From positions 992,001-1,056,000 of the forward strand of contig NZ_JACCFM010000001.1 of the NCBI RefSeq assembly GCF_013410665.1: a stretch of 64,000 nucleotides of DNA. The letters are read 5' to 3'. Below the pieces are notes generated by a model. The model was not told the DNA's origin. It saw nothing but the letters and a program-made list of their open reading frames with translations, and did no database searches. The position numbers and the translations under genes are program-made. This DNA comes from Leifsonia psychrotolerans. GTDB taxonomy: Bacteria > Actinomycetota > Actinomycetes > Actinomycetales > Microbacteriaceae. Below, one piece after another: positions 24,000 to 63,978 of the stretch. Every line of letters begins with the position of its first letter. Position 1 is the stretch's first letter.

Positions 24000-24260
24000 A
24001 TGGACCTGGTCTTCTTCTCCTCCGCGTTCTGCGAGCCGTGCCTGCAGACGCGCGAGGTTCTCGCTGAGGTGGCGCGGATGGTGCCGAACGCGACAGTGTC
24101 CGAGTTCGACGTCGCGCGAGATAACGCCGAGGCTGAGGCCAACGGGATCCGTTCGACGCCGACCGTGCTGGTGCGAAACGCTTCGGGCGTCGAGGTATTC
24201 CGCGCCGTCGGCGCGCCCACTCTCGATCAGGTGCTGGTCGCCGCGGCCAAGGCCATCTGA
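24000..24260 (+). CDS. Thioredoxin-fold protein
   Basis: An 86-residue, one-domain thioredoxin or glutaredoxin-like protein. It has the redox motif FCEPC at residues 11-15 and the cis-proline loop RSTPTVLV near residue 58. It is shorter than classical thioredoxin, similar to glutaredoxin-type mini-thioredoxins. Its partner is unknown. It follows the SCO4848-type gene by 14 bases and may share its transcript. It is the last intact host gene before the prophage. Confidence 0.82.
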   Translation: MDLVFFSSAFCEPCLQTREVLAEVARMVPNATVSEFDVARDNAEAEANGIRSTPTVLVRNASGVEVFRAVGAPTLDQVLVAAAKAI

Positions 24261-24340
24261 CCCCGAACGTTGCACGCGTGCACGCGCGAGGCCAGTTGCA
24301 TTCGAGCAGGGCCACGTTGGCGTAGTAGTCTCGATAGGTC

Positions 24341-24381
24341 GCCCCCGTAGCTCAGGGGATAGAGCAGGAGCCTTCTAATCT
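24341..24381 (+). pseudogene. 5' half of host tRNA-Arg(TCT), split by the prophage
   Basis: The acceptor strand GCCCCCG, D-arm GCTCAGGGGATAGAGC and anticodon arm GGAGC-CTTCTAA (anticodon TCT at 24374-24376) are present. After TAATCT the sequence becomes phage DNA (GAAGGG) with no variable loop, T-arm or 3' acceptor strand. The missing half starts again at about 63974 (TAATCTCTTGGTCGCAGG). The gene is therefore broken in its anticodon loop and not rebuilt at either end. Confidence 0.9.
24370..24381. repeat. attL core
   Basis: GCCTTCTAATCT, matching attR at 63968-63979 in 11 of 12 positions. The one difference is base 24375 (C here, G in attR), which is the middle base of the host anticodon. 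Strand exchange must therefore lie in TAATCT to the right of it. The same base forms the stop codon of the repressor on the other strand. Confidence 0.9.
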
Positions 24382-24638
24382 GAAGGGTGCCCCTTGGGCA
24401 TTGAGATCAGCTCAACGAGACTGATGCCGAAGACGCGCGCAATGCGCCCCAGCTCGTCTACGTCGAATGGCATTTCGCCATTGGTGCGGCGGCTCATCGT
24501 GGATTGAGTCATCCCGATCTCGCGGGCCAGCGCGGCATCCTTGATCTGTCGGACGCCCATGTGCGCGCGCACGGCTGCTGCAACGTTGTTCCGATGGCTG
24601 GTCTGCTCGGGGAACTTGCTTACGGTCGCGTTTCTCAT
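24375..24638 (-). CDS. Prophage-form repressor (XRE-type), truncated at attL
   Basis: An 87-residue DNA-binding protein with a lambda-type helix-turn-helix at residues 34-53 (DAALAREIGMTQSTMSRRTN). The ATG at 24638 is chosen because TATAGT lies six bases before it with a perfect TTGACA 18 bases further up, so the mRNA is probably leaderless. It ends KGHPSD and a TAG that spans the attachment core; the deciding base comes from the host tRNA. In the joined phage genome the frame would continue for 38 codons (see 63859-63978). It would repress early genes and its own promoter through the operators at 24675-24804. Confidence 0.88.
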   Translation of the reverse strand: MRNATVSKFPEQTSHRNNVAAAVRAHMGVRQIKDAALAREIGMTQSTMSRRTNGEMPFDVDELGRIARVFGISLVELISMPKGHPSD

Positions 24639-24644
24639 GGGTTC

Positions 24645-24674
24645 ACTATATTGGACGCATTCCGGGCATGTCAA
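24645..24674 (-). promoter_or_regulatory. Repressor promoter
   Basis: On the minus strand, TTGACA (24674-24669) and TATAGT (24650-24645) are separated by 18 bases. The ATG of the repressor begins six bases after the -10 box, so transcription should start at or next to the start codon. Confidence 0.85.
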
Positions 24675-24804
24675 CCGCTGGGCGGGTAGAAGTTCCCGCT
24701 GAGCGGGTAGAACCAACGACACGCACCGGAATGGATTAGGTATCTACCCATTCAGTGGGTAGAAATACCTACATGACCCAATCACTACCCACTCACCGGG
24801 TACC
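24675..24804. promoter_or_regulatory. Operator array between repressor and Cro-like gene
   Basis: Four related sites are seen. A perfect dyad, TCTACCCA-ttcag-TGGGTAGA, lies at 24743-24763. CCCGC-tga-GCGGG followed by TAG lies at 24695-24710. A GGGCGGGTAGA half-site lies at 24680-24690. CTACCC-actcacc-GGGTACC lies at 24785-24803 inside the start of the Cro-like gene. The common half-site is GGGTAG. Two sites sit close to the repressor promoter and two around the rightward start, as in a lambda-like switch. Confidence 0.75.
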
Positions 24805-25000
24805 GGATGCTCTGCGAGTGGCACTGTTCAGTGCCAAGGTGTCGCAGCAGAAGGCCGCATCCGTCACCGGCTACTCATCATCCGCCATATCGCGAAGGCT
24901 CGCAGGCGACACGCCTATCACCCTGGACGACCTGAACAGAATCGCTGCGGCGGCGGGGCTCGACGTGCAGATCATTCTCACCGAGAAGATCGCGGCGTGA
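24773..25000 (+). CDS. Cro-like helix-turn-helix protein
   Basis: A 75-residue protein transcribed divergently from the repressor. Its HTH (QQKAASVTGYSSSAISRRLAG, about residues 23-43) resembles XRE regulators. It is the first rightward gene, the usual place of cro. The ATG at 24773 fits the operator layout; a GTG 18 bases upstream lies inside an operator. The C-terminus TEKIAA ends in Ala-Ala, which can act as a ClpXP signal in short-lived regulators. The stop overlaps the GTG of the next gene. Confidence 0.75.
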   Translation: MTQSLPTHRVPDALRVALFSAKVSQQKAASVTGYSSSAISRRLAGDTPITLDDLNRIAAAAGLDVQIILTEKIAA

Positions 25001-41575: not shown

Positions 41576-41634
41576 TCCGGTGTAGCTCAGTCGGTAGAGC
41601 CACAGGCGCGCAGGTTCGAGCCCTGCCACCGGAA
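41576..41634 (+). other. tRNA-like element lacking the anticodon arm
   Basis: TCCGGTG and CACCGGA form a perfect 7-bp acceptor stem. The D-arm GCTCAGTCGGTAGAGC and the T-arm GCAGG-TTCGAGC-CCTGC are perfect. Between them only CACAGGCGC, nine bases, replaces the anticodon arm and variable loop. It cannot decode a codon. Confidence 0.75.
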
Positions 41635-41696: not shown

Positions 41697-41769
41697 GGGA
41701 GTAGAAGAGTCAAGGTGACAGCGCTGGCTGTAAACCAGTGCACGGCAGGTTCGATTCCTGCTGCTCCCA
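41697..41769 (+). tRNA. Probable phage tRNA-Tyr (anticodon GTA), atypical
   Basis: The acceptor stem is GGGAGTA with TGCTCCC, the anticodon arm GCTGG-CTGTAAA-CCAGT, and the T-arm GCAGG-TTCGATT-CCTGC. The variable loop is only five bases, unlike the long arm of normal bacterial tRNA-Tyr. The D-arm is poor (GTC-aaggt-GAC). It may be functional or a decaying tRNA. Confidence 0.6.
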
Positions 41770-62544: not shown

Positions 62545-62561
62545 GTTCTTCTTGCGACTGG

Positions 62562-62634
62562 TGCCCCTGGTAGGAATCGAACCTACGACAAGCGGATTAG
62601 AAGGCCGCTGCTCTATCCACTGAGCTACAGAGGC
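62562..62634 (-). tRNA. Phage tRNA-Arg (anticodon TCT) with encoded CCA
   Basis: The acceptor stem GCCTCTG pairs with CAGGGGC, then discriminator A and an encoded CCA (62561-62559). The D-arm is GCTCAGTGGATAGAGC, the anticodon arm GCGGC-CTTCTAA-TCCGC, and the T-arm GTAGG-TTCGATT-CCTAC. It has the same anticodon and the same C31-U39 mismatch as the host tRNA split by this prophage. It lies 15 bases downstream of integrase on the same strand. Confidence 0.95.
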
Positions 62635-62649
62635 AACCAGAACAGATTA

Positions 62650-63525
62650 CTACGCCGCTACCTGATCGACGTTCACACGGCTCCCGCGGATGGGCACGAC
62701 GACGCGGGGGAGAAGCTCCATAGCTGCACGGATGCGCGGTTCGTCGGGCAGCACGTAGGCGCTCATCGATTGCCCGTCACTGTGGCGCAACGAGTGTTGA
62801 ACGTCGAGCGAGTCGGCGCCCAGTGCGAGCAGCGTGGTCCCGTGCCACTTCCTCATGTCATGGGCCTTGTGCTCAATGCCGGCGCGTTTGAATGCGGCGC
62901 AGAGGGTGTTGCTGACTGACTTGCCGCGCACGTGTTCGCCGTCGATAAGGCCAGGGAACCAGTGCCCATTGCGCGGGTAGCCGTTGTCGACTGCGTGTTG
63001 CCAGATGACCGAGTGCAGAGGTCGCCATACTTCCTTGCGCCCTTTCCCCTCGACAGTGAAGATGCGGCGCGACTCCCAGTCAATGCTCTCCCCGGCCACG
63101 GCGGCGATCTCAGACGCTCGCAGCCCTTGGTACGAATACAGCAACACCTTCATGATCGTGTGTCCGTAGATGCCGGAATCTAGTACGCGCTGAATGTCCG
63201 AGGTTCGCACGGGGTTTGGTTCGTGGCGTTCGGCGCGGGGCCGGGGGAGACGTGCGGCCGGGTTGTCCTGGCGAATCTCTTCATCCTGCATCCATGAAAA
63301 GAACGTGTGGAGACATGACCGGTAGTTCTGCTTTGTCTTGCCAGTAAGGTCGGCGCGCCCGAGGAATGTTACAAGCTGCATCTTGGTGATGGCCATCAGG
63401 GATTCAGCGCCGGTGTGGCGCAGCATGGCGCGCATGAAGATGAGTCGCTCCTTGACGGTGCGGTCGGTGCAGTTCTGTGCGCGCATGTAGGCGGCCCAGT
63501 AGGCGAGCAATGGTGCATCTTGCAA
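62650..63525 (-). CDS. int: Tyrosine-family integrase
   Basis: A 291-residue tyrosine recombinase. The catalytic residues are Arg136 (GLRASEI), His222 and Arg225 (HDMRKWHG), His248 (LRHSD) and the nucleophile Tyr257 (SAYVLP). The N-terminal core-binding domain covers residues 1-100. There is no long arm-binding domain, as in short actinophage integrases. The start is TTG with GGGGGA upstream. It ends VDQVAA, an Ala-Ala end that could destabilise it. It lies in the same orientation as the small ORF and the repressor tail at attR. Confidence 0.9.
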   Translation of the reverse strand: MQDAPLLAYWAAYMRAQNCTDRTVKERLIFMRAMLRHTGAESLMAITKMQLVTFLGRADLTGKTKQNYRSCLHTFFSWMQDEEIRQDNPAARLPRPRAERHEPNPVRTSDIQRVLDSGIYGHTIMKVLLYSYQGLRASEIAAVAGESIDWESRRIFTVEGKGRKEVWRPLHSVIWQHAVDNGYPRNGHWFPGLIDGEHVRGKSVSNTLCAAFKRAGIEHKAHDMRKWHGTTLLALGADSLDVQHSLRHSDGQSMSAYVLPDEPRIRAAMELLPRVVVPIRGSRVNVDQVAA

Positions 63526-63592: not shown

Positions 63593-63862
63593 CTACTGGG
63601 GGTTGTGACCCTTGTGGGGGTCTGCGACCGCGCGCGTTAATATCGCATCATCTAGCTTCCGGTTGCACGCGGACGCGACGATCTCGAGCTTCTCGCGGGC
63701 TGAGTTCAACGAGCGAATGGCAATATCGATCTGTCGGATTGCGGCCCCAGCGTCGGCAGCCGTTTCTACGTCCCCTGATCCCATGGCATGTGCTGCATCG
63801 ACTGCATCGAGCGCATTCACCATGTCCCGGTAGACGGTGCCGGAGTACGGGTCGGCAGTCAT
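63593..63862 (-). CDS. 89-residue protein between repressor and integrase
   Basis: A soluble Ala-rich helical protein (MTADPYSGTVYRDMVNALDA, IRQIDIAIRSLNSAREKLEI). In the joined phage genome its ATG overlaps the stop of the long repressor form (ATGA), which places it in a repressor-orf89-integrase operon. It may be a recombination directionality factor or a regulator; no HTH is evident. In the prophage it is cut off from the repressor promoter. Confidence 0.65.
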   Translation of the reverse strand: MTADPYSGTVYRDMVNALDAVDAAHAMGSGDVETAADAGAAIRQIDIAIRSLNSAREKLEIVASACNRKLDDAILTRAVADPHKGHNPQ

Positions 63863-63978
63863 GCTGCACGACGCTTCGGGCCGGATACACTGGTTCTGCC
63901 GCGAGGGTGAGTAGCTACACCCCGTGACAGCCGCCTTTCACGCTCCTTGGAGATGTGAGAAACCGGGGCCTTGTAATC
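63859..63978 (-). other. Detached C-terminal extension of the viral-form repressor
   Basis: Read on the minus strand in phase with the repressor at attL, GAT is followed by TAC and 37 further sense codons (DYKAPVSHISKERERRLSRG, then VATHPRG... to GPKRRAA) and TGA at 63861-63859. The TGA overlaps the ATG of the next gene as ATGA. Joined through attP it would make a 125-residue repressor against 87 in the prophage. Confidence 0.8.

What the first reader, a model, noticed from the sequence alone, without database searches (positions are those of the whole stretch)
24341..24638. Integration-dependent immunity: the attachment core cuts the repressor gene, and the host anticodon supplies the stop codon
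Seen: the prophage repressor ends at TAG (24377-24375, minus strand) inside the att core. The deciding base, C at 24375, is host DNA (middle anticodon base); the phage copy in attR has G. Joining attR-left to attL-right gives GAT-TAC and 38 more open codons up to TGA at 63859-63861, which overlaps the ATG of the next gene as ATGA. Known: in mycobacteriophages such as BPs and Brujita, integration removes a C-terminal degradation tag from the repressor and so turns immunity on. Inference: the 125-residue viral form is unstable and the 87-residue prophage form active, with one host base as the switch. I do not know of a described case where the stop base is a tRNA anticodon base.
Basis: partly seen in the sequence, partly recalled or inferred. 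Interest (0 to 1): 0.95.

Follow-up and report, generated by a model that had tools for sequence, protein, structure and literature searches.

The report
Anticodon supplies phage repressor's stop codon
A virus lodged in a bacterial chromosome has split the host's arginine tRNA gene at the anticodon, where its repressor gene now ends early, and it carries the only intact copy of that tRNA found in the genome; the shorter repressor is likely the stable form that switches immunity on.

Summary
A 39.6-kb prophage splits a tRNA-Arg(UCU) gene; its repressor stops at TAG (24377-24375), whose deciding base is the middle anticodon base. Joining the phage ends gives TAC and a 125-residue form ending RRAA. 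Alone that open frame is weak (chance 0.37). Relatives make the case: 9 of 12 broken tRNA-Arg(UCU) sites carry a repressor-like frame ending Asp-TAG at the anticodon (2 do not, 1 is cut by a contig end), and 10 of 10 host-flanked right junctions read TAC or TAT.

The phage carries its own tRNA-Arg(UCU) beside int, the only one ARAGORN finds at the chromosome's 48 Rfam tRNA places. So integration-dependent immunity (as in BPs) and tRNA-dependent lysogeny (as in Fionnbharth) meet in one ~6-bp crossover. Min1 and seven Arthrobacter phage genomes share the layout; many repressors keep what looks like a decayed antisense tRNA 3' half.

A host base making the stop is published for BPs; the short core, tRNA swap and anticodon base I did not find in print. 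Stability, activity and tRNA need are inferred, untested.

The parts
24341..24381 (+). 5' part of the host tRNA-Arg(UCU) gene, cut in the anticodon loop (anticodon TCT = 24374-24376)
   Evidence: reconstructed empty site folds as tRNA-Arg(tct); left junction alone does not
24376..24381 (+). left copy of the 6-bp crossover TAATCT (attL)
   Evidence: left junction keeps host C at 24375, so exchange is inferred to lie here
24375..24377 (-). TAG stop of the prophage repressor; 24375 is the middle anticodon base
24375..24638 (-). repressor gene, prophage form of 87 residues (HTH_3, HTH_26; PHROG transcriptional repressor)
24645..24674 (-). likely repressor promoter TTGACA-18-TATAGT, close to the ATG at 24638 (mRNA may be near-leaderless)
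   Evidence: 11 of 12 consensus positions; mean 0.4 such sites in shuffles of the region; function not shown
24674..24800 (.). operator-like repeats (CCCGCTGAGCGGGTAG and kin) between repressor and the divergent cro-like gene
24755..25000 (+). divergent cro-like helix-turn-helix gene (an in-frame ATG lies at 24773)
62559..62634 (-). phage tRNA-Arg(UCU), the only intact one found in the chromosome
62650..63525 (-). tyrosine integrase, 291 residues, C-terminus NVDQVAA
63593..63862 (-). small gene (89 residues, no Pfam or PHROG family) whose ATG overlaps the stop of the viral repressor as ATGA
63859..63975 (-). [quoted passage not shown]
   Evidence: homologue P0122
63974..63979 (+). right copy of the 6-bp crossover TAATCT (attR); the tRNA 3' half continues past the window end

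Best explanation
The prophage sits in the anticodon loop of a host tRNA-Arg(UCU) gene, so its repressor gene ends at a TAG whose last base is a host anticodon base, and joining the phage ends reads TAC there and adds a 38-residue tail that likely marks the protein for degradation. In the phage particle the 125-residue repressor (..DYKAPVS..SGPKRRAA) is predicted to be unstable. Integrase (also ending ..VAA) would recombine a ~6-bp AGATTA with the same bases in the host gene. That one exchange would do three things: turn Tyr (TAC) into stop (TAG) and free a stable 87-residue repressor; detach the small gene and int from the repressor promoter; and destroy the host tRNA, which the phage's own tRNA-Arg(UCU) replaces. 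Shown by sequence: the split tRNA, the stop, the open frame in phage genomes of relatives, the phage tRNA as the only one found. Inferred: degradation, activity of the short form, need for the phage tRNA.
For: Own genome: at 48 Rfam tRNA places ARAGORN names a single tRNA-Arg(TCT), the phage's; other Arg tRNAs are ACG, CCG, CCT. A tRNA-Arg(TCT) pattern has 2 sites, the split gene and the phage copy; in the genus 52 of 57 genomes have one site, 4 two, 1 none.
Left junctions: 12 distinct broken tRNA-Arg(TCT) sites (own, 5, 6 more); in 9 a frame (83-209 residues stop to stop; own 87 from its ATG) ends ..D-TAG at the anticodon. 7 of the 8 not own match Pfam HTH families at E 0.001.
Right junctions with a host tRNA 3' half: 10 elements; TAC in 9, TAT in 1, stop in 0 (base left open in the search).
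Phage genomes: Min1 and 7 Arthrobacter phages read ..D-Y-K in frame inside the gene that their records call repressor or helix-turn-helix protein, upstream of int, with tRNA-Arg(TCT) near int.
tRNA-Arg(TCT) beside int in 26 of 32 int loci, near-duplicates included.
Tags: 14 of 23 viral tails end AA, against 44 of 777 mechanical ORFs; 67 of 120 listed integrases end AA. Host tmRNA tag ends FALAA.
Against: No experiment. 2 of 12 broken sites (L190, L193) have no repressor frame at the junction. 9 of 23 viral tails do not end AA, and the tails are not independent. The own tail ends RRAA, not LAA. tRNA-Arg(TCT) is missing beside int in 6 of 32 loci (L109 ends inside int) and in 6 of the 10 further matches of the family search (three of those loci are short), so related integrases also occur without it. 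The 15 phage-form sites came from a filter that demanded TAC. Min1 was reported integrated in a plasmid (PMC7302621, passage). No promoter match was found for the phage tRNA.
Confidence: 0.8

Rival explanations
1. tRNA-dependent lysogeny only: the phage breaks and replaces tRNA-Arg(UCU), but the two repressor forms are equally active and the stop is incidental.
For: Two other elements in the genus sit in the same anticodon, with an intact tRNA-Arg elsewhere in the genome, and no repressor frame at the junction (L190, L193). The own open extension could be chance (0.37).
Against: 9 of 12 broken sites have a repressor-like frame ending in Asp-TAG; 10 of 10 right junctions keep Tyr in frame; tails enriched for AA; P0122 conserves the own tail.
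Confidence: 0.1
2. The tail matters for coupling, not degradation: the long form translates into the small gene (ATGA overlap), and integration serves to cut that gene and int off the repressor promoter.
For: ATGA overlap here; ATGA again in Microcella L091; 4-base overlap of repressor and next gene in the Elesar, Nandita and QuinnAvery tables.
Against: Does not explain AA ends on both tails and integrases. Rathayibacter L092 and L100 have no ATGA at the viral stop.
Confidence: 0.12
3. Decayed prophage or assembly artefact: the truncation is damage.
For: Single genome; no induction data.
Against: Terminase, portal, head protease, tape measure and tail genes are present as long open frames; 8 elements have both junctions with matching frames; deposited phage genomes carry the open frame.
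Confidence: 0.03
4. The true host site is tRNA-Thr(UGU), whose loop CTTGTAA matches the phage base, and the Arg insertion is a secondary site.
For: Phage site reads CTTGTAA.
Against: 26 of 32 int loci carry tRNA-Arg(TCT) as a possible replacement, and the host tRNA-Thr(TGT) is intact (L024). The 12 broken sites are all tRNA-Arg(TCT), but the search pattern was for tRNA-Arg, so they do not bear on this.
Confidence: 0.02

Closest known systems
Integration-dependent immunity of mycobacteriophages BPs, Brujita, Charlie (PMC4557955 abstract and Introduction; PMC9262239 section 9; original Broussard 2013 not held)
   Same: attP inside the repressor gene, repressor then int on one strand, tRNA as attB, a host base beside the core makes the stop, AA-ended repressor and integrase, shorter prophage form. 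The window's integrase is 36% identical to Brujita's.
   Different: There a 35-bp core (BPs) carries the tRNA 3' half and rebuilds the tRNA; here the shared crossover is ~6 bp, the tRNA is destroyed, and the deciding base is an anticodon base at a mismatch. Whether the BPs base is itself an anticodon base I could not see (figure not held).
tRNA-dependent lysogeny of Fionnbharth, LeBron, Gaia (PMC10865867; abstract, sections 10 and 11, passages)
   Same: short core (8-17 bp in its Table 2), host tRNA not rebuilt, phage tRNA of the same isotype.
   Different: Its tRNA-dependent cases are Lys, Ile2 and Leu, none Arg; int mutants still give immunity there; integration-dependent immunity is named only as a separate system.
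prophiT36-2a/2b tandem prophages of Mycobacterium abscessus (PMC9934374; passages and section 8 part 1 of 2; record L212)
   Same: integration-dependent immunity plus a phage tRNA (tRNA-Thr) next to int that may compensate an impaired host tRNA.
   Different: 40-bp cores; the tRNA formed by the neighbour prophage is impaired by two unpaired positions, not split; the phage tRNA is absent from other MabB prophages.
Microbacterium phage Min1 and Arthrobacter phages Elesar, Nandita, Cole, Ryan, Zaheer, QuinnAvery, Gusanita
   Same: same layout in deposited phage DNA: repressor with in-frame GATTAC, int, tRNA-Arg(TCT)
   Different: the feature tables shown do not mark attP or name the system; the tRNA is on the strand opposite to int in the Arthrobacter phages

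Membership tests
Integration-dependent immunity (BPs type) | attP lies inside the repressor reading frame | tested here: met
   125-residue frame across the joined ends; homologue P0122 unbroken; in-frame GATTAC in the 8 phage records of this group that I fetched (TAC demanded by the filter)
Integration-dependent immunity (BPs type) | host sequence at attL ends the repressor | tested here: met
   TAG at 24377-24375; 9 of 12 broken sites alike
Integration-dependent immunity (BPs type) | repressor and int together on one strand, both with ssrA-like AA ends | tested here: met
   ..RRAA and ..VAA; a small gene lies between
Integration-dependent immunity (BPs type) | viral form degraded and inactive, short form stable and active | not testable with these tools
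   -
Integration-dependent immunity (BPs type) | core holds the tRNA 3' half so the tRNA is rebuilt (stated for these systems in PMC9262239 section 9) | tested here: not met
   ARAGORN finds no tRNA at attL or attR; filed therefore as working like this system, as a variant
Integration-dependent immunity (BPs type) | no recombination directionality factor and no arm-type sites | not tested
   -
tRNA-dependent lysogeny | tyrosine integrase, attB in a tRNA gene, short core, tRNA not rebuilt | tested here: met
tRNA-dependent lysogeny | phage tRNA of the same isotype and anticodon | tested here: met
   only copy found in the chromosome
tRNA-dependent lysogeny | phage tRNA required for lysogeny | not testable with these tools
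   -
tRNA-dependent lysogeny | immunity does not need integration (int mutants turbid) | not tested
   predicted to differ here

The most novel reading that the evidence does not exclude
Acquiring its own tRNA freed the phage from rebuilding the host's, and the anticodon became the switch. Because every cell must keep the anticodon of tRNA-Arg(UCU), it is among the most dependable stop-codon donors in a genome: the host cannot mutate the base without losing the tRNA. One crossover would thus commit the cell on three counts at once: repressor stabilised, integrase operon cut off, host tRNA lost and the cell dependent on the prophage. Relatives that keep a decayed antisense tRNA 3' half in the repressor are the intermediates, and the window's phage is the fully eroded end.
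Probability: 0.45. Interest if true: 0.78.

Novelty: new variant of a known kind. Interest (0 to 1): 0.66.

Why it matters
Two published departures from the lambda model, immunity that needs integration and lysogeny that needs a phage tRNA, are treated as separate in the papers I read. Here they would share one crossover, in phages of several actinobacterial genera, including isolated Arthrobacter phages that can be tested. It predicts that deleting int abolishes immunity and that losing the phage tRNA makes integration lethal. It also offers a sequence-level path, with possible surviving intermediates, from a long core that rebuilds the tRNA to a 6-bp one that does not.

Tried and rejected
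Own open extension as evidence: rejected, chance 0.37. 'Unrelated repressors converged': not claimed; single-linkage BLAST at 1e-4 joined all 21 repressors. tRNA-Thr(UGU) as true site: set aside (host copy intact). Close int relatives in viral contigs: only 2 loci, so an alignment was used. Promoter of the phage tRNA: no match. Repressor homologues in the protein database: 3, one of them the window's own.

Fossil test: 26 bases before GATTA in 20 repressor genes against antisense tRNA 3' halves (best of eight references, for target and control alike), with slid offsets as control. In 14 of 20 fewer than 5% of slid offsets did as well; own, Microcella, Rathayibacter, L100, L101 and Min1 (0.067) failed. 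Several are close kin. Conserved integrase-binding bases could also cause the likeness.

Full report
What is there. The window is G000:C1:992001-1056000 of a 3.82-Mb single-contig genome. A prophage runs from about 24376 to 63979, with terminase, portal, head protease, tape measure and tail genes and an Ant-type anti-repressor. It splits a tRNA-Arg gene: the 5' part is at 24341-24381, the 3' part lies just past the window end. The reconstructed empty site folds as tRNA-Arg(TCT); the left junction, right junction and phage site give no tRNA. The repressor (24638-24375, minus; HTH_3/HTH_26) stops at TAG, complementary to anticodon bases C35 and U36 and to A37. Of these only C35 differs from the phage, which has G at 63973.

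The two forms. Joining the phage ends gives 125 residues against 87. The added tail ends SGPKRRAA and its stop overlaps the next start as ATGA. The open extension could easily be chance (0.37), so it needs outside support. P0122, a metagenomic protein, reads through the same point (..LGDYIAMVSD..) and ends NSGPKRRAA.

The second half: the tRNA. ARAGORN on loci covering all 48 Rfam tRNA places of the chromosome names one tRNA-Arg(TCT), at 62559-62634, 15 bases past the integrase stop. A pattern for this tRNA has two sites in the genome, the split gene and this copy. In 57 genomes of the genus the pattern occurs once in 52, twice in 4 and not at all in 1; the last, G055, still has a tRNA-Arg(tct) by ARAGORN (L084). 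That AGA codons need this tRNA is established knowledge, recalled here. So the lysogen likely depends on the phage tRNA.

Relatives, left side. Searching 19 genomes or records that hold int relatives gave 16 pattern sites in 12 of them: 11 intact tRNAs, 5 broken. A second round took 16 sites from the genus search and from genomes with int matches: 9 intact, 7 broken, one of them the same element as before. With the window's own site this makes 12 distinct broken genes. In 9 a frame ends ..Asp-TAG at the anticodon: own, Leucobacter chromiisoli (L120), Microcella alkaliphila (L131), Rathayibacter sp. VKM Ac-2630 (L123), L133, L134, L195, L206, L211. Seven of the eight not own have Pfam helix-turn-helix hits at E 0.001; L134 has none but resembles the Min1 repressor by eye. 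In L190 and L193 no repressor reaches the junction. L173 is cut by a contig end. For the element at L195 I did not check which integrase it carries.

Relatives, right side. A scan that left the deciding base open, asked for an antisense T-arm before GATTA and excluded intact tRNAs, found ten host-flanked elements: nine TAC, one TAT (L199), no stop (other hits of that scan are told under Tried and rejected). So these phages keep tyrosine rather than one base. Tails run 12 to 48 residues; examples are DYLARVTQLRPAA, DYKAADSHMGELIPLFPAAA, DYMAAVSRPVRVMRLQSIGAAA and DYKADTSNVTQLFSTERQAA. Eight elements have both junctions, in matching frames (own, L120/L094, L131/L091, L123/L092, L134/L102, L195/L072, L206/L199, L211/L196).

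Phage genomes. Min1 (L055) and seven Arthrobacter phages (L056, L057, L137-L141) carry GATTAC in frame inside the repressor upstream of int, with tRNA-Arg(TCT) near int. These are deposited phage genomes, so the open frame there is observed, not reconstructed. Seven IMG/VR contigs (L100, L101, L106, L107, L109, L111, L112) also read through. These 15 passed a filter that demanded TAC; the base was left open.

How common. In 398 genomes of the family 11 have an integrase match at 1e-40, the window's included. Of the 10 others, 4 have tRNA-Arg(TCT) beside int and 6 do not; three of those six loci are only 2.3-3.8 kb. Among 32 int loci, 26 have it; L058, L093, L096, L109, L116, L117 do not, and L109 ends inside int. 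In nine long-core phages fetched for contrast no tRNA is annotated in the stretch shown.

Tags. Viral tails end AA in 14 of 23 against 44 of 777 mechanical ORFs, and in 2 of 4 found later; many are close kin, so the effective number is smaller. Integrases end AA in 67 of the 120 listed, of 160 found. The host tmRNA tag is APSKTISANSKRTDFALAA. That an ssrA-like AA end targets the repressor for proteolysis is stated for these systems in PMC9262239; that ClpX/ClpP would do it is recalled.

An erosion series. The 26 bases before the crossover in many repressors still resemble the antisense tRNA 3' half: 15-16 of 26 in L120, L133, L211, Elesar and Nandita, against about 8.4 at slid offsets; in 14 of 20 fewer than 5% of slid offsets do as well. 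The window's phage (9 of 26), Microcella (8), Rathayibacter (9), L101 (8), L100 (11) and Min1 (12) fail this. In protein, intact antisense tRNA reads ..SNLRPxD, and the repressors read SNLEPLD, NIRPID, NRRPTD, NRQPKD and finally HPSD. I read this as decay of a long core after the phage took its own tRNA. Integrase binding could also preserve part of it.

Control region. A strong promoter match (11 of 12) lies at 24674-24645 just before the repressor start, and four operator-like repeats lie between it and the divergent cro-like gene.

Literature. BPs: a host base next to a 35-bp core turns Cys into TGA and the tRNA-Arg is rebuilt (PMC9262239, section 9 read whole). In some M. abscessus prophages the stop is formed by the first bacterial base (PMC8092301, passages). 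tRNA-dependent lysogeny: PMC10865867 (abstract, sections 10-11, passages); its Table 2 has no tRNA-Arg case, and its Discussion sets integration-dependent immunity apart. The nearest combination in print that I saw is prophiT36-2b with its tRNA-Thr (PMC9934374, passages and section 8 part 1 of 2). PMC5559632 and PMC6109161 describe further integration-dependent systems, and PMC5513430 an Arthrobacter phage (Galaxy) that resembles one but has no attP in the repressor (passages); PMC13313380 and PMC7302621 show no combination in the passages seen. In the listings I saw no title or abstract opening that fuses the two systems by a short core or names an anticodon base as the stop. I opened only some of those papers, and the library lacks most subscription journals.

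Verdict. It is a variant in which two known systems are fused, not a new category.

Noticed in passing
window 41576-41634 (+): A tRNA-like sequence with acceptor, D and T arms but no anticodon arm (Rfam tRNA 44.7 bits; ARAGORN does not report it).
   Followed up: partly
window 41697-41768 (+): A second odd tRNA-like sequence (best Rfam match tRNA-Sec, 32 bits, below that family's cut-off) 62 bases further on.
   Followed up: partly
window 24341-24638: With the tRNA split, the host tRNA gene's transcription would run into the repressor gene from its 3' end, so antisense transcription of the repressor is possible in the lysogen; no terminator-like site was found at 24200-24900.
   Followed up: no
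L190 (G019) and L193 (G036): Other elements split tRNA-Arg(UCU) at the same anticodon, with an intact copy elsewhere in the genome (L191, L192), but no repressor reaches the junction; perhaps a different tRNA-replacing element.
   Followed up: partly
L091 5382-5484: Two antisense tRNA-Arg 3' halves about 64 bases apart at the right end of the Microcella prophage, perhaps the scar of a second integration.
   Followed up: no
L057, L137-L141: Six of the seven Arthrobacter phages fetched here carry a second annotated tyrosine integrase within 2 kb of the tRNA-Arg gene.
   Followed up: no
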